From NCBI GenBank assembly GCA_021797815.1, contig JAJZYZ010000016.1, positions 1-44,041 of the forward strand: DNA of 44,041 nucleotides, in the 5' to 3' direction. The notes beneath the pieces are model-generated. The model saw nothing but the letters and a program-made list of their open reading frames with translations. It had not been told where the DNA came from and ran no database searches. Both the position numbers and the translations under genes were made by a program. This document shows positions 1 to 24,103 of this stretch, one piece after another. This stretch comes from Bacillota bacterium. Its GTDB lineage: Bacteria > Bacillota > Sulfobacillia > Sulfobacillales > JAIMBI01. Position 1 is the first letter of the stretch. Each line of letters begins with the position of its first letter.

Positions 1-33
1 ACCCGGTGGCTCGCGCAACGCATGACGTGGACG

Positions 34-2806
34 GGTCGATCCCCGCTCACGCGGGGGAGCCATCTACCACGTCAATGCCCCTCCTTTAGTAGAGGGTCGA
101 TCCCCGCTCACGCGGGGGAGTCTCGAAGGCCACACTGCCGGGGTAATACGCGCTGGGTCGATCCCCGCTCACGCGGGGGAGCCGCGAGTGACCGGTCGGT
201 GGTCCAGGTCAAGCCGGGTCGATCCCCGCTCACGCGGGGGAGCCCCCGACCAAGTGTCCGCCCAGGACCGCCGCCGGGGTCGATCCCCGCTCACGCGGGG
301 GAGCCGCCACCTGCGCGCGGCACCAGTCGGTGGCCGTGGGTCGATCCCCGCTCACGCGGGGGAGCCAGGGGGAGCGGTGGCTCCTATGCCTACTACTAGG
401 GTCGATCCCCGCTCACGCGGGGGAGCCGGTTTTATCGCGTTTGGCGGTCGGTCGAGTCTGGGTCGATCCCCGCTCACGCGGGGGATCCGCAGGGACGTTG
501 ATCACCTGGTCGAGGCCGAGGGGTCGATCCCCGCTCACGCGGGGGAGCCTACGATAGGGATGTATACGCCACGGGTAGCCCGGGTCGATCCCCGCTCACG
601 CGGGGGAGCCTTCGGGTCGAGGTCCTCTAACACCGCCCCCGGGGGTCGATCCCCGCTCACGCGGGGGAGCCGGCGTCACGATTGATGTCGGATTGCCATA
701 GCACGGTCGATCCCCGCTCACGCGGGGGAGCCGTCCTCTGGTACTCCGGCCGCGCGTAGCAAGGCGGTCGATCCCCGCTCACGCGGGGGAGCCATTCAGA
801 CGATCCCCGTGACGACCCTGACCCAGGGTCGATCCCCGCTCACGCGGGGGAGCCCGTTGCGCTTGTTGCGCTTGCCCCGTTGCGCAGGGTCGATCCCCGC
901 TCACGCGGGGGAGCCTCTCCTGCTCGCATGGCTCGCAAGCTCGATCCAGGTCGATCCCCGCTCACGCGGGGGAGCCCTCCCATGACGCCCGAAGAGGAAG
1001 AGGCCTTAGGGTCGATCCCCGCTCACGCGGGGGAGCCGTGAAACCCCAGAGCGCGATCTCATAGGCAGTCGGTCGATCCCCGCTCACGCGGGGGAGCCCC
1101 GGGGAGCATCCAGAAGAGTCGGTGGGGCTGGGGTCGATCCCCGCTCACGCGGGGGAGCCCGCTATTTCGCAGGCTTCGGAGTGCCCGCAGGCGGTCGATC
1201 CCCGCTCACGCGGGGGAGCCATTCAGACGATCCCCGTGACGACCCTGACCCAGGGTCGATCCCCGCTCACGCGGGGGAGCCTCCCAGCTGACGGGCATGA
1301 TTAACCTCGCGCAGGGTCGATCCCCGCTCACGCGGGGGAGCCTCTATGCCGCTAGAGGCGCCGGGCCATACCGGGGGTCGATCCCCGCTCACGCGGGGGA
1401 GCCACCATCACGACCGACGAAACCTGGAACATCCTGGGTCGATCCCCGCTCACGCGGGGGAGCCGCCAAAATAGCGCCAAACGTGGGCGGGAGGAACGGT
1501 CGATCCCCGCTCACGCGGGGGAGCCGCGACCAGCGTGGGCGGTCCCACCTGCGGGGGCGGTCGATCCCCGCTCACGCGGGGGAGCCGCGGTATCGACCCG
1601 GACAAAACGGCGTATCAGGGGTCGATCCCCGCTCACGCGGGGGAGCCGCGCGGATGGCGGCGTCGAGGGAGCCGCAGTAGGGTCGATCCCCGCTCACGCG
1701 GGGGAGCCCGACCATGTGTTGATCCCTCGCCATGCTAGGAAGGTCGATCCCCGCTCACGCGGGGGAGCCCGATCGTGAACCCAGGGGTCGCGTCAACACG
1801 CGGGTCGATCCCCGCTCACGCGGGGGAGCCCGCCGCCGGTGTGCTGGCCTCTCACATCAAAAGGGTCGATCCCCGCTCACGCGGGGGAGCCCCCGCGAGG
1901 GCGTCCTGCCGCGCTTGGCGGGGAGGTCGATCCCCGCTCACGCGGGGGAACCGGGTATAGCTCATACCCTGGTAGGTATCCCCAGGGTCGATCCCCGCTC
2001 ACGCGGGGGAGCCCCGCTGCATGAACGGAAAGGCTGCTAGAATCGCGGTCGATCCCCGCTCACGCGGGGGAGCCGCGGCGTCCGAGGCATCGAGCGGAGG
2101 CGGGGTGGGTCGATCCCCGCTCACGCGGGGGAGCCCCCTACACCACCACACAGGTCACCGACGGCGGCGGTCGATCCCCGCTCACGCGGGGGAGCCCCGT
2201 CCTCCTCGAGGGGTCCGCCCCGGCCCCCGGGTCGATCCCCGCTCACGCGGGGGAGCCAGGTGTAGCCCGTGACCGCCAGCTGCCACTGGAGGTCGATCCC
2301 CGCTCACGCGGGGGAGCCGCCGCCTAGAACGTGGACAGACGGGCATCGAGGGGTCGATCCCCGCTCACGCGGGGGAGCCATCCTGACACACCACTAGAAG
2401 CTGATCCCCAACGGTCGATCCCCGCTCACGCGGGGGAGCCCGAAGCCCGCAAAGCCTGCGAAATAGCGCCAAAGGTCGATCCCCGCTCACGCGGGGGAGC
2501 CGCCCTCATCAACCTGGGCGGCGCGTTCCACGCGGGTCGATCCCCGCTCACGCGGGGGAGCCGCGAGCGACCGGTCGGTGGTCCAGGTCAAGCCGGGTCG
2601 ATCCCCGCTCACGCGGGGGAGCCGTGACCTTGGTCAGCGCCCCGCTCAGGCTCGCGGGTCGATCCCCGCTCACGCGGGGGAGCCCCGGTCGGACTCAGGA
2701 ACGGCGCCGGCTGCGGGGGTCGATCCCCGCTCACGCGGGGGAGCCTCCCGAATTGGCCGCGGCGGTCGACTCCATCAGGGTCGATCCCCGCTCACGCGGG
2801 GGAGCC
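34..2806 (-). CRISPR. Type I-E CRISPR array, 46 repeats, transcribed leftward
   Basis: A 28-bp repeat recurs at exactly 61-bp steps from 34 to 2779, giving 46 repeats and 45 enclosed spacers of 33 bp; bases 1-33 are one more spacer-length segment, so the array probably continues left of the window. Read on the minus strand the repeat has the stem CCCCGC-GTGA-GCGGGG followed by ATCGACC, matching the layout of the E. coli type I-E repeat whose 3' end supplies the 8-nt crRNA 5' handle. The strand is therefore the same as the cas genes, and the newest spacers lie at the right end by cas2. Three repeats carry one substitution each (95-122, 461-488, 1925-1952), all in the last three bases of the plus-strand form, outside stem and handle. 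Spacers at 794-826 and 1221-1253 are identical; those at 184-216 and 2563-2595 differ by one base. Confidence 0.98.
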
Positions 2807-2864
2807 TCTTGACAGCCTATCACCCTGGGACGTATGATACGACCTTCGTTGTGTTATTCACTTG
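2807..2864 (-). promoter_or_regulatory. CRISPR leader
   Basis: This 58-bp stretch lies between the cas2 stop and the leader-proximal repeat and is richer in A+T than its surroundings. It is bracketed by a 7-bp inverted repeat, CTTGACA at 2808-2814 and TGTCAAG at 2863-2869, 48 bp apart. On the minus strand the right copy reads TTGACA and overlaps the cas2 stop codon, so it could serve as a -35 element. However, the best -10-like hexamer, TATCAT at 2834-2839, is 23 bp away, too far for a standard sigma-A promoter. Position and orientation support the leader call; the roles of the individual motifs are inferred. Confidence 0.7.
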
Positions 2865-3185
2865 TCAAGGATCGCCGGGCGAACTCTCGGTGGCAACTGC
2901 TGTTCGCTTAGTCAGTACTATCCCGTCGCGTTCCACGAGCTCGACCGGAGGAATTCCTAAAACCCTGACCGATTGGCCAGCGGGGAGATCAATGGAGTCC
3001 CAAACCATTACGATACTGGCGTTCTCCTCGTCGTAGAACCAGTCGGATAAAACATCCCAAATCCTGGCTCGAACGGCTGGGGATATCCGAGCCGCTGTGT
3101 AGACGCCGGGTCCCAACTCCAACATAGACGACGCTAGAAAGCCCCTTACGCGATTAGAAGCGTTCCGCGTCACCACTACGGTCAT
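2865..3185 (-). CDS. cas2: CRISPR adaptation protein Cas2, type I-E
   Basis: This 106-residue protein is the dimeric core subunit of the Cas1-Cas2 integrase that inserts new spacers at the leader-repeat junction. The N-terminus MTVVVTR followed by an RGFL segment and LELGPGVYTA matches the Cas2e family (E. coli Cas2 begins with a similar VVVT strand and has an AGVY motif). An IWDVL helix and a VMVWD strand follow, as in the family. The start codon lies 32 bp inside the end of cas1, and the family-like N-terminus argues for this start despite the long overlap. It is the last cas gene before the leader. No DnaQ-like extension is fused to it, unlike some I-E Cas2 proteins; a separate DnaQ-like gene sits at the far end of the operon. 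Confidence 0.96.
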   Translation of the reverse strand: MTVVVTRNASNRVRGFLASSMLELGPGVYTAARISPAVRARIWDVLSDWFYDEENASIVMVWDSIDLPAGQSVRVLGIPPVELVERDGIVLTKRTAVATESSPGDP

Positions 3186-4059
3186 GGACGTGCAGTAACT
3201 CCTTTATCTGCTCGATCATGGTCGGAATGAGTTTATGGCGTCGAAACCACTCAGCGGCGGCGAGACGAACCTCCCGTTCGAGGCTCTTGTGCGGGGACTT
3301 AAGGACAGTGGATGCCGCCGAAAAAGCCAGAGGCAGAGTGACACTCACGCGGAAGAGATCGGCAATGTCCAATGAAAACGCGTTACTCGATTCCTCGTGT
3401 ATGAAACCAAGGGGCGGCAATGCCCCGACAGCAGCGACGGCTATTTCCGCCGCCGATTCTACGAACGTCGCGGCATGATTGACAGCCTGGTTTGGAATGT
3501 CGGCGGCTTCGGGATTGTCACGGTCATACCGACGGCCTATCCACTCTATCCCATGCTGGCGCGCAAGAATACGGTACGACTCGCGGAGCCGCCCCCCCTC
3601 CATGCCGCGCATCTGGGCGATGTCGCGTTGAACGGGACGCTCCCCAAATCGGATGGCGTACATTTCTCTCGCCACGTCCAGCCGTAGACTTTCGTCCGCC
3701 CACAAGGTGGCATGGGCGCGTGCCACGTCCGACCGACCTTGCCCTATGGGTGGCGCCGTGTAGAGCTTAACCCCGCCATCGCCGACGGCGGCCAGCAACG
3801 TCCCATGGCGAGCTAGCAGGCGAAGAACATCGTGCGTCACGGTTGTGCCGGGCCCTATGAGGAGCATCGAGATTGTTTGATAGGGAATAGCATAAGTACC
3901 AGGGTCCAGCTGGTCGCTGGCACTGGCGACGAACTGTAAGGTACCGTCTTCTACGGACAGCCGGCCGCGGGACAACCATAGTAGCCCATGTCTGTCCACG
4001 TGGGGAATTCGGGAGGCGGCCAGCCCTAAGCGCCCACGAAACAGATGAGGGGAACTCAT
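3154..4059 (-). CDS. cas1: CRISPR adaptation endonuclease/integrase Cas1, type I-E
   Basis: This 301-residue metal-dependent integrase works with Cas2 to capture prespacers and join them to the array. The N-terminal beta-rich half is followed by the alpha-helical catalytic half. By comparison with E. coli Cas1 (E141, H208, D221), the likely metal ligands are E154 in RGMEG, H221 in GFIHEES and D231/D234 in SLDIADLF, all present. Length is usual for Cas1e. Its ATG overlaps the cas6e stop by 4 bp (ATGA type), which implies translational coupling, and its 3' end overlaps cas2. I see no frameshift, so the adaptation module looks functional. Confidence 0.98.
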   Translation of the reverse strand: MSSPHLFRGRLGLAASRIPHVDRHGLLWLSRGRLSVEDGTLQFVASASDQLDPGTYAIPYQTISMLLIGPGTTVTHDVLRLLARHGTLLAAVGDGGVKLYTAPPIGQGRSDVARAHATLWADESLRLDVAREMYAIRFGERPVQRDIAQMRGMEGGRLRESYRILARQHGIEWIGRRYDRDNPEAADIPNQAVNHAATFVESAAEIAVAAVGALPPLGFIHEESSNAFSLDIADLFRVSVTLPLAFSAASTVLKSPHKSLEREVRLAAAEWFRRHKLIPTMIEQIKELLHVHDRSGDAERF

Positions 4060-4787
4060 CGGGGCGCACGCAGGAGCAGCATTCCGTATCCGAACGCCCG
4101 ATGACGCCCCACGCCTCTGAGCAGCAGGGTGCGAAATACGTCCGGATTTTGGACGGTCAACCGTCCTCGAAACAAAGCCTGGGGCCTAACGATGGTGTTC
4201 TGGCGACGCCCCGTAGAACCCGCCTGATCTTTTCGAACTTGGTGAACGAAGCGGAATCCCTCAAGATTCGCCTCGTCTAATAAGACGCCGTCGCCCTCTT
4301 CCAACTGGGTGCGGATCCAGTCTTTGTAGACTTGGGTTCTGTCAAGTGTGCCCGGTTCAGCATGATCTGCGCGCATCAGAAAGACGTCCTTCTCGACTCG
4401 CGGATTGGACCGGCGCCCAACGGGGCAGCAGATAACCTCGAACCCCAGCTGACGGCCAGCCCCGAAATCTGGCATCACCTTGCTCGCGATATCGGAGCGG
4501 TTCGGGGTAACGGTCGCAACCATCGGAGAAGCATAGTTTCGCATTTGCTCCTGAAGGGCTTCGGCCCCGTGCCCGCTGTACGCGAGTACGCGGGTGGGGC
4601 GGTGACCGTCCACCAACAGCCGCCAGGGGTAGGGTGCTAAGTCGCCAAAGGCTGCCTTCATCCACGCATGTGTCGTGTAGCCAAGATCTTCGTCACGCGC
4701 TGCTGCCTGCAGACTCTGCACTTTGGCGAACCGTAGTAGCGCCGCCGTGTCGATAAGTATCTCGACCATGTATAGCTCACCCATCAC
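4056..4787 (-). CDS. cas6e: crRNA-processing endoribonuclease Cas6e (CasE/Cse3)
   Basis: This 243-residue RNase cuts the repeat RNA at the base of its stem and stays bound as part of Cascade. It has the double ferredoxin-like layout with the glycine-rich signature near the C-terminus (GVGRHRAFGYGMLLL), typical of Cas6e. A histidine at residue 40 in the TTHAWMKAAF helix is in the place of the catalytic His of E. coli CasE (H20). The first ATG overlaps cas5e by 4 bp; an internal Met at residue 7 (MVEILID) resembles the usual family N-terminus and could be the real start. Its natural substrate is the stem-loop of the array in this window. Confidence 0.96.
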   Translation of the reverse strand: MMGELYMVEILIDTAALLRFAKVQSLQAAARDEDLGYTTHAWMKAAFGDLAPYPWRLLVDGHRPTRVLAYSGHGAEALQEQMRNYASPMVATVTPNRSDIASKVMPDFGAGRQLGFEVICCPVGRRSNPRVEKDVFLMRADHAEPGTLDRTQVYKDWIRTQLEEGDGVLLDEANLEGFRFVHQVRKDQAGSTGRRQNTIVRPQALFRGRLTVQNPDVFRTLLLRGVGRHRAFGYGMLLLRAPR

Positions 4788-5521
4788 TGCTGACCATCCA
4801 CAGCTATGAGCCCCTCACTTCTCCAACGGCTTCCGGCCATGAGCTGGTTTCGCCAGTCACGCAGATCATATACTGGGCGCCCGGACCCTGATTGTTGCGT
4901 GCCGTCGGCCGGCCAACATGCCTCCAGTTGGCCGGAATGGACACGTCGACGACCCGCCCGATCCCACGCGCCGACACTGCGAAGAATGTCGAGCAGGTTG
5001 GGCCCGCTCACCAGGGGTGTAGTGGGGTCAAGCAAGGGCCGGGCTGGTACGCAACTCTTACGCCCCAAAAATAGCGGCCGTTTCGGATGTCTTAGTGCCT
5101 GTCCCAAGTGTTCCAGGCTTGGCCAGTCATCAGAATCTAACGCTACAGCTATGGTCATCAGGCCATCTGCCCAGTAGTGCCGGAACCGCTGCGAGGTTCC
5201 TGCGGTCGCCTCTCCTTTCCCCCTTTGCTCCGGCTTGCCCCGAGTAGTCCAACCTGCTTCCTTCATCGAGTCCTGTCCGAGGTCGACCGTCTGATAATCA
5301 AGCAGTGGCTGAGGGGCTACGTCCCATCGTGCCGCGTACTTGACACGACTCTGCAGGCCTTCGAGCTCACGGGAGTCTCCGTGGGATAAACCGAGGGCGT
5401 TGGCGAACAATCCAGTCAACATCGCCTGACCAGGAAACCGATCAGTAAAGCCGTGCTGATCGACGACCACACCGCCGAAACTCATCATCGGGGCGTCCAC
5501 GCGAAGGATTAGAGCCTCCAT
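4784..5521 (-). CDS. cas5e: Cascade subunit Cas5e (CasD)
   Basis: This 245-residue RAMP protein caps the crRNA 5' handle in Cascade. The N-terminal strand MEALILRVDAPMMSFGG, the segment RFPGQAMLTGLFANALG and the late motif RPLFLGRKSCVPARPLL are hallmarks of Cas5e. Its ATG shares one base with the TGA of cas7e (TGATG), so the two are tightly coupled. In this subtype Cas5 is non-catalytic, and repeat cleavage is done by Cas6e. Length is normal. Confidence 0.97.
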   Translation of the reverse strand: MEALILRVDAPMMSFGGVVVDQHGFTDRFPGQAMLTGLFANALGLSHGDSRELEGLQSRVKYAARWDVAPQPLLDYQTVDLGQDSMKEAGWTTRGKPEQRGKGEATAGTSQRFRHYWADGLMTIAVALDSDDWPSLEHLGQALRHPKRPLFLGRKSCVPARPLLDPTTPLVSGPNLLDILRSVGAWDRAGRRRVHSGQLEACWPADGTQQSGSGRPVYDLRDWRNQLMAGSRWRSEGLIAVDGQQ

Positions 5522-6696
5522 CAGCTACGCCCCAGGGCCGTTTCCAACGACTCGACGATGGCGGTAGCCAGGGGCTGCCGTTCCCCCATGCCCGGCCAGT
5601 CATAGGTGGTAGCCACGCGGCGCAGCTCTGCGGTCGGGCCATACATGCTGTCCATAGCAGAAATGTATTGGGCCAGCGCACCAACCGATGACTGCATGAC
5701 GTCACCCGTGCCGGAAACGGGTCGCAAGAAGGCATTGGCGAGGCTTCGCGGCTGAGAGGTACCCACTTCAAGAACCACGCAATCAGCGCGCGCGTACGGG
5801 GCCGTCGCCCCGAGTTTGGCTCCAGGCGTGACCTCTGCTATCGCGTGAACCAGCAGCTCGAGGAGGCGTCGGGCGGGGAGCAGGTCCTGTGCCTGCCATG
5901 CATTGGAGTCGGTGCCCGAAAGATTGCTCACCAAGAGCGGGACGTCTACCACGACATAGCCGTAGAACACGCCGGCTCCAAGCTCCATATCGTTTGCATG
6001 AGCGGCGCCGGTCTCCTCGAGCCGTGCCAGGTCATCCACCACTGTGAAGAAGTCGACTTCCGTATCGAGGGCATGGGTGGTAAAGGCATGGGCAACATGC
6101 ACCGGGGCATCAACCCGAGCCAGTATGTCCGAGGTCACAAAACGACCGAACATCGCTCCCTCAAATCCCACCATGGGATCTGCCGCTCCAGCAGCCCTCA
6201 TCAATGCGGCCAGGTTGGCCCGATGCTCCTTTTTCTTTAACGTCTCGTCCAGATGGGCAATCCCAAGCTCTAAGGTCTCCTTGTGCGAGGCCTCCTCAAT
6301 CAGATGAACGAAATAGTCGATCTCCGGTTTGCCAAATAGTATGGGCTGCCGCATGGCCAACCCTTCCTCCAAGGGTTTCTTGTCCCCCGTGGACATGAAA
6401 AGATTCTTCGCCAACGTCTGTATGAGCGCCTCGGCGGCCGCAGAGTCGAGTCCGTCCTCTTCGAGCCGCGTCTTCACGATGCGATCAAAAACGTGCCGGG
6501 TACGAACCCCCGATGGGAGGCCGAGTTCCTGGTGAACCATCCACGTGCGCCAGTGCCTTTTTTGGCTCTGGCTGGAGATGCGGAGCCTCGGAGCACTGCC
6601 AAACGAGATACGTTTGGCCAAGCCGGCATCGTCGCGATTCAACAGCGTCGCATGATAGCTGGTCAGAAAGTGAATCTGTAAGAACACATCCCTCAC
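5521..6696 (-). CDS. cas7e: Cascade backbone subunit Cas7e (CasC/Cse4)
   Basis: This 391-residue RAMP protein polymerises along the spacer part of the crRNA to form the Cascade backbone, six copies in E. coli. Recognisable segments are the N-terminal IHFLTSYHATLLNRDD with RISSQSQKRHWR, then MVGFEGAMFGRFVTSD, VAHAFTTHALDTEVDFFTVVDD, and GAGVFYGYVVVDVPLLVSNL. All are family-typical and in the expected order. The gene starts 1 bp inside the end of cse2 territory (4-bp overlap, 6693-6696) and ends in a TGATG junction with cas5e. No defects are seen. Confidence 0.97.
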   Translation of the reverse strand: MRDVFLQIHFLTSYHATLLNRDDAGLAKRISFGSAPRLRISSQSQKRHWRTWMVHQELGLPSGVRTRHVFDRIVKTRLEEDGLDSAAAEALIQTLAKNLFMSTGDKKPLEEGLAMRQPILFGKPEIDYFVHLIEEASHKETLELGIAHLDETLKKKEHRANLAALMRAAGAADPMVGFEGAMFGRFVTSDILARVDAPVHVAHAFTTHALDTEVDFFTVVDDLARLEETGAAHANDMELGAGVFYGYVVVDVPLLVSNLSGTDSNAWQAQDLLPARRLLELLVHAIAEVTPGAKLGATAPYARADCVVLEVGTSQPRSLANAFLRPVSGTGDVMQSSVGALAQYISAMDSMYGPTAELRRVATTYDWPGMGERQPLATAIVESLETALGRS

Positions 6697-7166
6697 CCTT
6701 TCGTAACAGTGTGATAGAAGTCGGAAGCAATGAGCCGACGCAGTTGTTCACGCGCAGATGCGTCGTGGGTTAGGACCAGGCGAGCCGCATCCGCCCAGTT
6801 TACCGACCGCCCTTTGGCGGCGAGAAAGCGCGCCATGCGGATTACCAAAGTGCGGAGGACCGGCCCTTCGGCCGCTAGCAAGCGCTCCAATCGCGCTTCT
6901 GAGTACTGAAGATCGGCCAGGCCACGGCCGAGAGGATGGTGGGGATCATGGCCGCCAGGGCTGAGAAGCGCCAGCCCACCCACCACCGTGACCCAATCGT
7001 CGACGGATTCGGAACCGCGGTCCCACTCGTCCGGTAGGAATCGCATGGCAAAGCGGTAGAACGCCACCGGAATGCTTCGATCTGGATTGAGCCGACGGAG
7101 GCCCGCCAACTCTCCCGGGGTAGCGGCTGAGCTGGACAGATAGGCGGAAGCTCGGCCTACCACCAC
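6693..7166 (-). CDS. cse2: Cascade small subunit Cse2 (Cas11e/CasB)
   Basis: This 157-residue all-helical protein forms the Cascade belly dimer that stabilises the R-loop. Evidence is position between cas8e and cas7e, size, and helical segments with the GELAGLRRLNPDRS and AFYRFAMRFLP patterns seen in Cse2. The start is uncertain. The frame is open upstream to 7202 without an ATG, so GTG at 7164-7166 (or the adjoining GTG at 7161) is the best standard choice, although no good ribosome-binding site precedes it. The 22-bp gap after cas8e is the only real gap in the operon downstream of cas3. Confidence 0.9.
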   Translation of the reverse strand: MVVGRASAYLSSSAATPGELAGLRRLNPDRSIPVAFYRFAMRFLPDEWDRGSESVDDWVTVVGGLALLSPGGHDPHHPLGRGLADLQYSEARLERLLAAEGPVLRTLVIRMARFLAAKGRSVNWADAARLVLTHDASAREQLRRLIASDFYHTVTKG

Positions 7167-7188
7167 CGCCAGCGAAGTGCGCTCTATG

Positions 7189-8757
7189 TCAGACGTCTTG
7201 TCTCATCTCCTTTCTCATCCACGGAAAGAATCGGGGGCTGTGCAGGATTCCGAAGAAGGTCCGTTCAGCCTCAACTTGCGCGCGATAGGCTCGTCCGGCG
7301 CGGTGGGGCCAGCCCACTTCAACGTCGTGGAGCACGCTCAGGGCATGACTAGTTAGTTGCTCGACCCACTGGGTCAGGGCGTCCTGCTCGTTGTCGTCGT
7401 CGGCATGGTCCCAGACCCACGGGAAATAGTCCGCTCGCCATCGTTGTTCGAAGGCGCGGTCGGCACGGATCCACCACGCCCCTGTCGCCGTTCGGTCCAT
7501 AACCACCGTGGCGGGCCCGCCTTCCAGGTACACAAACACGGCACGTCGAAGGGCCTGGGTCGTCTTCGACGCGTAGTCGAGTCCAGCCTTGCTGAGTGAT
7601 GTCAGGTGTTGACGCCTCTCCCTGCCTCCAAAAAGTGTGGGAACCACCTGAGGCGGGATGCGAACCGTTTCCGCGTAAAATCCTTCCGTCTTCCCCTGTC
7701 CTCGGACCAGAACCGAGGCCAGCAACCACATCTCACTTCGCGCCCAGTCACTTCCTGGACGCTGCAAAGCAGATAGACCGAGGTCGTCACCAAATACCAG
7801 GCGCCGCATCACGTCTGCGGTGAGACCCCTCGGTGAGACCGTGAGGGCCTTGGCCGTGGCCTCCTTACTATCCGCAGATCCCAGCTCAGTCGGGAGCCAG
7901 GGATCGCCCAGCACGCCCAATAGTTGTTTAGCGTCGATGCGGTCGTTTTGGCAGGACACATCTTCTGCCCAGATTTGCTCCCCGTCACTCCGCAGGCGAA
8001 CACGCCGGCACACTTCTATGAAGCACGGGTCCAGCGCTGTCAAAGGTAAGGGTGTCACCCCGTCCCAGGGAACCGTCCAAAGAAGAACCAGGCCATCAGA
8101 GTCGTAATGATACGGAGCTGCGAGCAGCTCTTGGCGGTGAGCCAAAAGCCGCTCCACGGCGTCGATCCATCGACGGCCCCAACGAAAACTCTGGACGAGT
8201 TCCACCACCAGACGATTGCCGAACCCACTGTTCATGCGGGAGATGCCGCGATTGCCGGCGCCGAGATACCCGCTCATTGTTTGAAGGCTAACTAGGGCGT
8301 AAACCCAGTCATCCGGCTGCGCCCGCGTTGCCCGTGCAGCCTTAACGTCGTGATTCTTTGACGTCACCAGAAGGTCGAGCGCGTCGGGAGTGACCGCCTT
8401 CACTTTCAGACGCCCGATGTCACTGACGGGTAGCGGGGGCTGCATGAAGGCGGCGAGTCGCGGATTAGGACTAACGAGCGCCCAGGCGTCTAGAGTGTCG
8501 CCGGCCAACTCGCTCAATGCGGCCTCCCAGAACTGGGAGCGCTGCACAGCGCTCGTCTTTCCATGCCGGGCTAATAGGGCTGCGCCTAGGTAACACAGAA
8601 AGATGTGCCAGGCATCTTCCTGGTGGCGCTGTAGGGCGCCATAGGTGTCAAGCTGGTCTTGCCCCAGCGATTCCAAAAGGTCTGGCAAGGTGAGCCGCTG
8701 GCTCTGTCCGGCCAGTTCCACGCGAAAGATCGGGTCGGTCAAAAGATTCGCATTCAT
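7189..8757 (-). CDS. cas8e: Cascade large subunit Cas8e (Cse1/CasA)
   Basis: This 522-residue large subunit recognises the PAM, opens the DNA target and recruits Cas3. The opening (NLLTDPIFRVEL, then LTLPDLLESLG) and the HQEDAWHIFLCYLGAALL helix are characteristic of Cse1. The segment SGYLGAGNRGISRMNSGFGNR corresponds to the conserved glycine-rich middle of the family. The gene overlaps cas3 by 4 bp (8754-8757). Length fits the family (about 500 residues). PAM preference cannot be read from the sequence but can be compared with the spacer-end bias in the array. Confidence 0.97.
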   Translation of the reverse strand: MNANLLTDPIFRVELAGQSQRLTLPDLLESLGQDQLDTYGALQRHQEDAWHIFLCYLGAALLARHGKTSAVQRSQFWEAALSELAGDTLDAWALVSPNPRLAAFMQPPLPVSDIGRLKVKAVTPDALDLLVTSKNHDVKAARATRAQPDDWVYALVSLQTMSGYLGAGNRGISRMNSGFGNRLVVELVQSFRWGRRWIDAVERLLAHRQELLAAPYHYDSDGLVLLWTVPWDGVTPLPLTALDPCFIEVCRRVRLRSDGEQIWAEDVSCQNDRIDAKQLLGVLGDPWLPTELGSADSKEATAKALTVSPRGLTADVMRRLVFGDDLGLSALQRPGSDWARSEMWLLASVLVRGQGKTEGFYAETVRIPPQVVPTLFGGRERRQHLTSLSKAGLDYASKTTQALRRAVFVYLEGGPATVVMDRTATGAWWIRADRAFEQRWRADYFPWVWDHADDDNEQDALTQWVEQLTSHALSVLHDVEVGWPHRAGRAYRAQVEAERTFFGILHSPRFFPWMRKEMRQDV

Positions 8758-11402
8758 GCGCTCGGTGTCTCCACTTCCAGGCCAAATCGGGTGTACCGAT
8801 ACGTTCGATCTCCAAAAGCAAACCGGATGGCGGTCCTGTCTTCGTCCAGAACGGTAGCAGGAAGGGTCTGGTCCCGGGGTGCCATGAATCCTGGTATGAG
8901 CATTTCCGTGACCGTTTGCCCAAAGGGACTGATTACGGGTCGGCTCAACGGGACGCTCAGAGTATCTAAACCAAGGCGCGTTGTGACCCGTTGTCCCAGT
9001 TCCCGGAACGCCACCGTGTGGAACGGTTCGTCAAACCCTAGAATCACGTGAGAGGCCGTAACCGACAGCGCGAGTTCTTTGCCTTCTACCCGGGCTCCGT
9101 GGTTCTTCCAACGTTCTTCGGTTAGCCCACCAAGCGCATCGGGATGGGTAGTACCCTCGACCCACAGCCGATTCTCTGAAGGAACTCGCATCAACTGTCG
9201 CTCGGACACCATCTGTCGCGTAAGTTCGAGAACCCGCAGATCTTCGTATACGCTTCCTAGCCCCACCTGTGTCCAGGGGGCTTGAGCCCGTCCCGATTTG
9301 TCGAGAGCGCTGCTCATATCCTCTGGGGTTGTTAGGACCACGCATCGAGGATCCGACAATCCGGACGGGCGTACTCGGCCGGCATGTCGATGCAGGCGTC
9401 CGATGCGCTGCAGCAGCACGTCGGCCGGAGCGAGGTCCGTGACCAGGAAATCGGCGTCCAGATCCAGGCTTTGTTCGAGGGTCTGCGTGCCGATCACAAG
9501 AGCCGGTCCGTCAGGTCCTCTTGCTCCGAACCGAGACACGAGCACACGATCCATGACGGCCCGGTCGGCCCGGCTGAACCTCCCGTGGTGTGGGCACGCT
9601 AGGCCGTTGACTTGGTAGATCCAGTCGGAGGAGATGAGGGTGCTCTCCTCGACGGCGCGAAGCAATGCGATCGCCCGGGCCACCGTGTTCATAACGACCA
9701 GTACCCGCGCGCCAGCCTGCAAGGGACGCTCCAGAACCTCGCACACGCGCTCAGGGATAAACGCCCAGGGCTCCGTCTCCAAGGCGATGTGCCGATCCAC
9801 GACCGTTTCAGAAACGGGCAAAGACGTACCGTCGCGGAAGGTTAGTGCCGGATACGAGGCGTGGATGGCCTGGTCTAGAGGTGCAGGAGTGCTCGGCGGC
9901 TTGACATAACGGGACTTAGCAAGGCTCCCCAGTGTCGCTGAAAGGAGCAACGCGTACCCGTCGATGCTCAAATGATGGTCAAGGAGGCGTTCCAAAAGTG
10001 CCGTCATGTAAACATCGGACGCGTGCACCTCGTCCACCACCAGCAGGTGACGGTCGACACAGACCGATCGCAAGTGGGCATGGTTGACTTGCAGCACCGA
10101 CAGCAAGCCCTGGTCGATTGTCCCGACCACTACGGTTCCCGCCAAAAAGCGCTTAGGCCCTTCAGCCGCCCAAACCCGCTCGTTCCGCCACTGGTCCGAC
10201 TCAAGGTCCATATGCGAGTCTTCAACGGCCGCCAAGAGCGTTGACGGGTCGAGACCGTCGACTTGGGAGTACCCGGGCGTGGCGAGCACGGTGACAGGGC
10301 GAGTTAGCGGATCGGGGAACCAGCGCACTATGGTGTCGTTGACCCGGTCATACATAGCCTGCGCCGCGACACGAGTAGGCAGGGCAAAAAACAAGCCATC
10401 AACCAAGTTAGCTCGGAACAGGCGATACCACCAGTTGAGCGCAGCTTCTGTCTTGCCAGATCCTGTTTCTGCTTCTGCAATGAGGAGGTGGGCGTTTGCC
10501 GTCTCTATCGGCAAGGAGTCGAGGGCCGCCTGCAGAGGCCTTGGCGGAGAAGCATAGGGGAAGCGGTCGCGAAACGTGTCGAGGTTGTGGAGACTCACAA
10601 ATTGCCACAGAGTCCGGGGGTCGAGTCCGACAACCCGGAGGATCGCCGGAGCCGCGCTGCGATCATGCGTCACTCGCTGCTCGAATGACACATTCTCGAT
10701 AGGGAACCAGCGAGCGTTAGACCCGAGCCAGTCCGCCAAAGATACCAGGCCCGCGAATCGATGATGAAGCTGGGGGGATTTTGGCAGGGCCGGTCCGCGC
10801 TCAAGAACTCGGGGAAAGGCTCTGCGGCCCCACTCAAGAATGGCGGACACAGCGTCCATAGGGTCTCGGGTGCCATCTGACACCCACCACTCCGTACGCG
10901 CCTGCCAGTACGTGCCGCTCATTTCGCCGTTAAAGCGTACCGGTCGCCCGTGGTGAGAAAACGTGGCCAAGAGGTAGCAGTACGCGTCCACGTCGTCGGC
11001 AAACCAGTCCCCAATTGTGGGTCCCAGCACATCAAGGAAGCGCCGCTGCAAGTCCGGGTCGGACACTTCGGCGTCTAAGAGGGGGGCCAGTTCGCGAACG
11101 TGTCCAGCGCGCGGATACTCGGGAGATAGCACCTTGCGCTGAAAACCTAAATTGGCCTTGCCGGCGTCATGCAACATTGCCAGCAGGGCCAGGCGATCCA
11201 CGTCAAAGTCCGTAATCGGGCGCTCACTGCTTTCGACGAGGGCTCGGTGCATGGCGGGCATTTCCGATAGAGCCCGAAACATCACACCCACATCCAGGCA
11301 ATGTGCGGCCAGAGGCAAGGATTTCTGCTGCCCTTCTATATACTTGCCCCAGAACGCTAATCCCGGGTGATTACTCATTTTTGAGTCAGCCATTCCCCTC
11401 AC
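8754..11402 (-). CDS. cas3: CRISPR effector nuclease-helicase Cas3, type I
   Basis: This 882-residue protein degrades DNA marked by Cascade. The N-terminal HD nuclease has H34, the pair H78-D79 in MLHDAGKAN, H150-H151 in TFSHHGRP and D224 in SLADW, a full metal-binding set. The SF2 helicase part shows Walker A at about 311-318 (AETGSGKT), DEVH at 457-460, and a later LLSATLG motif III. HD domain and helicase are fused, as usual in I-E. The longest frame begins at GTG 11402; ATG codons at residues 4 and 9 are alternatives, and none has an ideally spaced ribosome-binding site. It is the first cas gene of the minus-strand operon. Confidence 0.98.
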   Translation of the reverse strand: MRGMADSKMSNHPGLAFWGKYIEGQQKSLPLAAHCLDVGVMFRALSEMPAMHRALVESSERPITDFDVDRLALLAMLHDAGKANLGFQRKVLSPEYPRAGHVRELAPLLDAEVSDPDLQRRFLDVLGPTIGDWFADDVDAYCYLLATFSHHGRPVRFNGEMSGTYWQARTEWWVSDGTRDPMDAVSAILEWGRRAFPRVLERGPALPKSPQLHHRFAGLVSLADWLGSNARWFPIENVSFEQRVTHDRSAAPAILRVVGLDPRTLWQFVSLHNLDTFRDRFPYASPPRPLQAALDSLPIETANAHLLIAEAETGSGKTEAALNWWYRLFRANLVDGLFFALPTRVAAQAMYDRVNDTIVRWFPDPLTRPVTVLATPGYSQVDGLDPSTLLAAVEDSHMDLESDQWRNERVWAAEGPKRFLAGTVVVGTIDQGLLSVLQVNHAHLRSVCVDRHLLVVDEVHASDVYMTALLERLLDHHLSIDGYALLLSATLGSLAKSRYVKPPSTPAPLDQAIHASYPALTFRDGTSLPVSETVVDRHIALETEPWAFIPERVCEVLERPLQAGARVLVVMNTVARAIALLRAVEESTLISSDWIYQVNGLACPHHGRFSRADRAVMDRVLVSRFGARGPDGPALVIGTQTLEQSLDLDADFLVTDLAPADVLLQRIGRLHRHAGRVRPSGLSDPRCVVLTTPEDMSSALDKSGRAQAPWTQVGLGSVYEDLRVLELTRQMVSERQLMRVPSENRLWVEGTTHPDALGGLTEERWKNHGARVEGKELALSVTASHVILGFDEPFHTVAFRELGQRVTTRLGLDTLSVPLSRPVISPFGQTVTEMLIPGFMAPRDQTLPATVLDEDRTAIRFAFGDRTYRYTRFGLEVETPSA

Positions 11403-23596: not shown

Positions 23597-23932
23597 CTAC
23601 AGCTTCCGGGGCTTCTTGTCGCCACGGGCGAAGGCCGCGAGCTCCTCTTCGGACCGGAAGCCCACGAGACGGCCGGTCTCTTCGCCGTTCGCGAACCGGA
23701 TAGTGGTGGGAATACCGACCACGCGATAACGCGACGCCAACTCCGGTTCCTCATCGGTGTCGACGTGCACCATCACGGCCGCGCCGCCCACTTCGTCTGC
23801 TGCCTGTTCCGCGACTGGACCCAGCCGCCGACAGTGCGGTCACCAGTTGGCGCCGAAAACTACGACGGTGGGCGTCGTTGCCCGCAGTACGACCTCGTCA
23901 AAAGTGACCGTGTCCACTTCCGAAAGAACCAT
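23597..23932 (-). CDS. Thioredoxin-like selenoprotein candidate (in-frame TGA in active site, UPHC)
   Basis: Reading from ATG 23930-23932 to TAG at 23597 gives 112 codons in one frame, interrupted only by TGA at 23840-23842 (codon 31). The context is W30-TGA31-P32-H33-C34, so the TGA replaces the nucleophilic Cys of a thioredoxin CxxC site. Before it come a beta strand (TPTVVVFGAN); after it RRLGP, the strand AAVMVHVD, and cis-Pro75 in VGIPTT, a complete thioredoxin fold of 111 residues. AAGGAGG sits 5 bp before the ATG. A hairpin with loop GGUC follows the TGA at SECIS spacing. I infer selenocysteine insertion; an inactivating mutation or sequencing error is the alternative. CPHC is the DsbA-type motif, so this may be a strongly oxidising redox protein. 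SelA/B/C/D genes are not in the window. Confidence 0.8.
23811..23828 (-). promoter_or_regulatory. Bacterial SECIS-like hairpin in thioredoxin-like mRNA
   Basis: On the minus strand GCGGCTG (23828-23822) pairs with CAGTCGC (23817-23811), seven pairs including one G-U, closing the loop GGTC (23821-23818). Eighteen bases separate the TGA from the loop. As I recall it, E. coli fdhF has the same 18-nt spacing and the same GGUC loop, whose G23 and U24 contact SelB. The bulged U17 of fdhF is not present here; that position is a paired G. Confidence 0.65.
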
Positions 23933-24103
23933 AAAAGCCTCCTTAAAAAGCCTCCTTGACTACGTCTTGAACGACGCCTTCCCCATATGGTACCAAGCTC
24001 CACGACCCTACACAGCACGGGGGGAAGGCGACGGCTCCGGGCCACCAGGGCCGCGTGGGCCAAGACGTAGAGATTGCTATGATGGCGACAACGGAGTGAT
24101 GCG

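What the first reader, a model, noticed from the sequence alone, without database searches (positions are those of the whole stretch)
23597..23932. Probable unrecognised selenoprotein: thioredoxin fold with UPHC active site
The frame from ATG 23932 is open for 112 codons except for a single TGA at codon 31, exactly where the nucleophilic Cys of the W-C-x-x-C motif belongs. Both flanks are well-conserved thioredoxin sequence, including cis-Pro75, and a strong ribosome-binding site precedes the ATG. Standard gene callers would report only a 64-residue fragment from 23791. The resulting UPHC pairs Sec with the dipeptide of DsbA in a short thioredoxin, a combination I do not know as a described family.
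Basis: partly seen in the sequence, partly recalled or inferred. Interest (0 to 1): 0.82.

Follow-up and report, generated by a model that had tools for sequence, protein, structure and literature searches.

The report
Overlooked selenocysteine thioredoxin with UPHC site
The gene that looks broken by a stop codon is almost certainly an intact thioredoxin whose key catalytic residue is selenocysteine, conserved in sixteen related bacterial genomes; selenocysteine thioredoxins are already known, but this branch with its unusual active site does not seem to have been described.

Summary
The frame 23932-23597(-) is a 111-residue thioredoxin (Pfam E=2e-22) with a single in-frame TGA (23842-23840) at the nucleophile position of W-U-P-H-C. 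It is not a mutation or an error. The same TGA sits at the same codon in 16 of 154 genomes of the class: 15 in the window's own order (including a finished 3.47 Mb chromosome) and one in another family of the class. Both flanks are under coding constraint. Twelve of the 16 genes carry a hairpin with a GGUC-type loop exactly 18 nt after the UGA, fitting published bacterial SECIS rules; only 1 of 21 cysteine thioredoxin genes can form that stem. A relative (G506) has TGC instead of TGA and lacks the hairpin. The genome encodes SelB and a SelD that is itself a selenoprotein. selA and selC are missing from this assembly, but in its sister genome both lie just beyond points where contigs of this assembly end. 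Sec-thioredoxins (PF00085, UxxC) are an experimentally verified family, so this is a new subfamily (UPHC/UPYC/UPAC, no Asp26, single clade), not a new kind of system. The physiological role is unproven.

The parts
23597..23932 (-). Sec-thioredoxin gene, 111 codons plus TAG stop
23840..23842 (-). in-frame TGA read as selenocysteine 31, the nucleophile of W-U-P-H-C
   Evidence: same codon in 16 genomes; TGC in G506
23831..23842 (-). redox motif U31-P-H-C34; C34 is the resolving cysteine
23811..23828 (-). putative bacterial SECIS hairpin, 7-bp stem with GGUC apical loop at 23818-23821, 18 nt after the UGA
   Evidence: rules from PMC13188914
23708..23710 (-). cis-proline P75 codon
   Evidence: invariant in 15 of 15
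23938..23944 (-). ribosome-binding site AAGGAGG (second copy at 23951-23957)

Best explanation
The gene encodes a cytoplasmic selenocysteine-containing thioredoxin. Ribosomes reach UGA at codon 31. SelB bound to GTP and Sec-tRNA-Sec recognises the hairpin just downstream (GGUC loop 18 nt after the UGA) and inserts Sec instead of terminating. The product has a thioredoxin fold with Sec31-Pro-His-Cys34. Sec31 attacks substrate disulfides (or related oxidised substrates), Cys34 resolves the mixed selenosulfide, and thioredoxin reductase probably recycles the protein. Shown here: gene, fold family, conserved TGA, coding constraint, hairpin, Sec/Cys pair, SelB and Sec-SelD in the genome. Inferred: actual Sec insertion, use of a selC/selA that fall in assembly gaps, cytoplasmic location (no signal peptide evident), recycling by thioredoxin reductase, and substrates. 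Also inferred: all Sec forms of the order lack the buried Asp26 of canonical thioredoxin and have PH (PY in one) instead of GP, so the redox chemistry should differ from TrxA.
For: TGA at the catalytic codon in 16 of 154 genomes of the class, 15 in the own order and 1 in another family. The 15 Sec forms of the order are a single clade against 21 Cys thioredoxins, support 100/99. Third-position bias after the TGA. Hairpin intact in 12 of 16 Sec genes at one fixed position, against 1 of 21 Cys genes with the stem and none with a comparably stable consensus hairpin; two pairs show changes on both sides. It fits the bSECIS rules: 4-nt loop beginning GG, 7-bp stem, 18-nt spacing, MFE -12.4 with flanks. 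G507 has U with the hairpin; its family member G506 has C without it. SelB and SelD with UGA at the known UxxK site in the same genome. selA over the curated cut-off in all 14 other Sec-Trx genomes of the order. Syntenic locus near nusG in several members.
Against: selA and tRNA-Sec are not in this assembly, explained only indirectly by contig ends. One genus (g3, four genomes) keeps the TGA but its downstream sequence does not form the consensus hairpin. Covariation is slight because the stem hardly varies (32 of 500 shuffles reach the score). No proteomic or 75Se data.
Confidence: 0.95

Rival explanations
1. Pseudogene: a thioredoxin gene broken by a nonsense mutation, or a sequencing or assembly error at one codon.
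For: A standard caller would see a frame broken at codon 31; MAG-like contig set; selA and selC not in this assembly.
Against: Same TGA in 15 other genomes including a finished chromosome, no other internal stops, coding constraint on both flanks, precise placement at the nucleophile.
Confidence: 0.01
2. UGA is recoded, but as cysteine or tryptophan (readthrough or local code change), not Sec.
For: Insertion of Cys would also give a working W-C-P-H-C site.
Against: TGA terminates many other genes of the window and terminates several of the Sec-Trx genes themselves; SelB and Sec-SelD present; SECIS-like hairpin; TGA replaces exactly the redox Cys.
Confidence: 0.02
3. The present strain has lost Sec decoding (no selA/selC) and the gene is a recent relic.
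For: No SelA and no tRNA-Sec above the family cut-off in the assembly.
Against: Contig C126 begins about 0.7 kb from where selA lies in G001 and contig C1 ends about 0.8 kb before selC; SelB and SelD-UGA intact; 81% identity to the G001 protein with third-position bias shows no relaxation.
Confidence: 0.02

Closest known systems
Selenocysteine thioredoxin (PF00085, UxxC; Kim et al. 2015, listed as experimentally verified in PMC13188914)
   Same: Short single-domain thioredoxin, Sec at the N-terminal (nucleophilic) position of the motif, Cys resolving.
   Different: Dipeptide PH (PY in one, PA in one); Asp26 replaced by V/M/L; separate clade of one Bacillota class. The active-site dipeptide of the characterised Sec-Trx could not be checked (paper not held).
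Canonical TrxA (TIGR01068)
   Same: Fold, W before the motif, cis-Pro.
   Different: CGPC, CVPC and similar, with Asp26, in all 21 Cys genes compared; P0001 scores 74.4 bits against the 96.8 cut-off.
DsbA (CPHC)
   Same: Pro-His dipeptide.
   Different: No DsbA-family (PF01323) match in the Pfam scan; only 111 aa with no room for a helical insertion.
Other Trx-like UxxC selenoproteins: SaoT (NF040730), HUIPC thioredoxin-like (NF047660)
   Same: UxxC in a Trx-like fold.
   Different: Neither model matched P0001 at E<=1e-3; motif is WUPHC.

Membership tests
Selenocysteine thioredoxin (PF00085 with UxxC) | Pfam Thioredoxin domain spanning the TGA | tested here: met
   E=2.1e-22, 79.5 bits against cut-off 23.5
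Selenocysteine thioredoxin (PF00085 with UxxC) | In-frame TGA at the nucleophilic Cys, with TGA-containing homologues in other organisms | tested here: met
   16 genomes
Selenocysteine thioredoxin (PF00085 with UxxC) | Cys-containing homologue aligned at the TGA | tested here: met
   G506 WCPAC, family of G507 WUPAC; Cys thioredoxins
Selenocysteine thioredoxin (PF00085 with UxxC) | Bacterial SECIS (3-9 nt loop with G in first two positions, 4-16 bp stem, 16-37 nt spacing, MFE <= -7.5) | tested here: met
   window gene: GGUC loop, 7 bp, 18 nt, -9.9 (hairpin alone) to -12.4 with flanks; not met by the four g3 genomes
Selenocysteine thioredoxin (PF00085 with UxxC) | Sec-decoding machinery in the genome | tested here: inconclusive
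   selB and selD present; selA and selC absent from the assembly but contig ends lie beside their expected places
Selenocysteine thioredoxin (PF00085 with UxxC) | Selenium in the protein | not testable with these tools
   needs 75Se labelling or mass spectrometry
Canonical TrxA (TIGR01068) | Equivalog score above curated cut-off; Asp26; CGPC | tested here: not met
   74.4 < 96.8 bits; V at position 26, UPHC
DsbA | PF01323 domain | tested here: not met
   not among Pfam matches
SaoT / HUIPC thioredoxin-like selenoproteins | NF040730 or NF047660 model match | tested here: not met
   no match at E<=1e-3

The most novel reading that the evidence does not exclude
A distinct Sec-thioredoxin subfamily in which Sec, the Pro-His dipeptide and loss of Asp26 together give a redox protein with a function different from general thioredoxin (for example a dedicated reductase for a peroxiredoxin or metalloid oxyanion in acidophiles), rather than just a faster TrxA.
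Probability: 0.35. Interest if true: 0.55.

Novelty: new variant of a known kind. Interest (0 to 1): 0.42.

Why it matters
It adds a conserved selenoprotein gene, likely truncated or missed by gene callers, to a Sulfobacillus-like bacterial order. It also gives a clean natural series (UPHC, UPYC, UPAC, CPAC, with and without hairpin) for testing how a SECIS element is gained or lost and what Sec does in a thioredoxin that lacks Asp26.

Tried and rejected
Rfam RF00031 search in the own genome gave nothing, but the control genomes did not ring either. RNAalifold on the ungapped alignment of all 15 order members gave no useful consensus helix, because genus g3 differs; the named helix was counted instead. 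The AlphaFold model from a two-sequence alignment had pLDDT 48 and was not used. A first tree was discarded because duplicate row names merged sequences; it was redone. The plasmid collection held only matches under 60% identity. Literature search for UPHC returned only public-health papers among those listed. Pseudogene, error and code reassignment were considered and rejected.

Full report
Observation. The minus-strand frame 23932-23597 encodes 111 residues with a single in-frame TGA at codon 31 (23842-23840) and a TAG stop. The translation with Cys at that place matches Pfam Thioredoxin at E=2.1e-22 across residues 6-102 and solved thioredoxin-fold proteins at E of 2e-20 and better. AAGGAGG precedes the ATG.

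Conservation. A search of 61 related genomes found TGA-bearing homologues in the same genus (81% identity), the same family (51-53%) and the same order (37-54%). All carry W-TGA-P-H-C (W-TGA-P-Y-C in G035) with otherwise open frames. A search of 154 genomes of the class found these 15 plus one more, G507, in a different family, with W-TGA-P-A-C; its family member G506 has W-TGC-P-A-C. In a sample of 398 genomes of the phylum, matches at E<=1e-24 with an in-frame TGA came only from this order. The 15 order members form one clade apart from 21 Cys thioredoxins (support 100/99). Between the window gene and its same-genus relative, differences after the TGA fall 1, 4 and 15 at the three codon positions, so the part after the TGA is translated. 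In several members the gene lies near nusG and often a DNA methyltransferase gene, which supports orthology; it has no obvious operon partner.

Recoding signal. In 12 of the 16 genes the stretch GCGRCUG-GGUC-CAGUCGC, or a close variant, forms a 6-9 bp hairpin whose four-base loop (GGUC; GGGC in G031) begins exactly 18 nt after the UGA. [quoted passage not shown] The window gene meets all four (-12.4 with flanks). From memory, the loop G and U occupy the same positions (G23, U24) as in E. coli fdhF. Synonymous-codon shuffles give this stem in about 2-8% of cases per gene. Only 1 of 21 Cys thioredoxin genes forms it. G506, with Cys, has no such hairpin. Two of seven pairs show a change on both sides; formal covariation is weak because the stem hardly varies. 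The four g3 genomes keep the TGA but not this hairpin. The review notes that a subset of known selenoprotein genes does not fit the model.

Machinery. The genome encodes SelB (625 aa, 332 bits, locus) and a SelD with TGA in GKSG-U-GCK, the known UxxK selenoprotein site. SelA and tRNA-Sec were not found in this assembly. In the same-genus genome G001, selA lies on contig C89, and the matching contig of our genome (C126) starts, at its first base, about 0.7 kb from selA. selC of G001 (anticodon TCA) lies about 0.8 kb beyond the point where our contig C1 (39,888 bases) ends. In G001 itself selC sits at two contig ends that share 127 bases, so the region assembles badly. All 14 other Sec-Trx genomes of the order have selA over the curated cut-off. 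Sec-containing formate dehydrogenase and PrxU have been reported in Sulfobacillus (PMC4378227; PMC7409299). That this order is Sulfobacillus-like is my inference, from the G009 chromosome length of 3,472,898 bases.

Mechanism. Best reading (0.95): SelB-dependent insertion of Sec at UGA31 gives a thioredoxin with Sec31 as nucleophile and Cys34 as resolver. All 15 order members lack Asp26 (V, M or L there), while all 21 Cys genes keep it. Asp26 normally helps deprotonate the resolving Cys (established knowledge); the low pKa and good leaving-group character of Sec may relax that need (inference). PH instead of GP should make the couple more oxidising than TrxA (from known thioredoxin/DsbA variants, memory). 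Recycling by thioredoxin reductase and a role in peroxide or metal stress are plausible but untested.

Known or new. Sec-thioredoxin (PF00085, UxxC) is on the list of experimentally verified prokaryotic selenoproteins (PMC13188914; also PMC9312934 and PMC1088965). No NCBIfam selenoprotein model was hit except a weak, sub-cut-off match to TsoB and a weak one to TIGR02187. I found no paper describing a UPHC thioredoxin or a selenoprotein thioredoxin in Sulfobacillus, but the library holds open-access papers only. I therefore call it a new variant of a known kind.

Noticed in passing
window 1-11402: CRISPR repeat array and what look like type I-E cas genes by translation (cas3 8754-11402, cse1 7189-8757, cas7, cas5, cas6, cas1, cas2).
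   Followed up: no
L023:9100-10195 (G000:C15:19166-20098): selD of the same genome is itself a selenoprotein gene: TGA in GKSG-U-GCK.
   Followed up: partly
L105:9734-9827 and L106:30-123 (G001): tRNA-Sec sits at the end of one contig and the start of another with a 127-base overlap, as if a repeat or strain variation breaks the assembly at selC; a cysteine-synthase-like gene lies just upstream.
   Followed up: partly
G000 whole genome: The Sec-Trx is the only thioredoxin hit in this assembly at E<=1e-3, whereas G001 also has a Cys thioredoxin; probably another gap, but a genome relying on Sec-Trx alone would be notable.
   Followed up: no
window 23933-23960: The ribosome-binding stretch AAGGAGGCTTTT is duplicated in tandem just before the ATG.
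   Followed up: no
G003-G006 (L026-L029): One genus keeps UPHC-Trx with TGA but has GGATCCCGTGG-type sequence in place of the GGUC hairpin; its SECIS element must be of another shape.
   Followed up: partly
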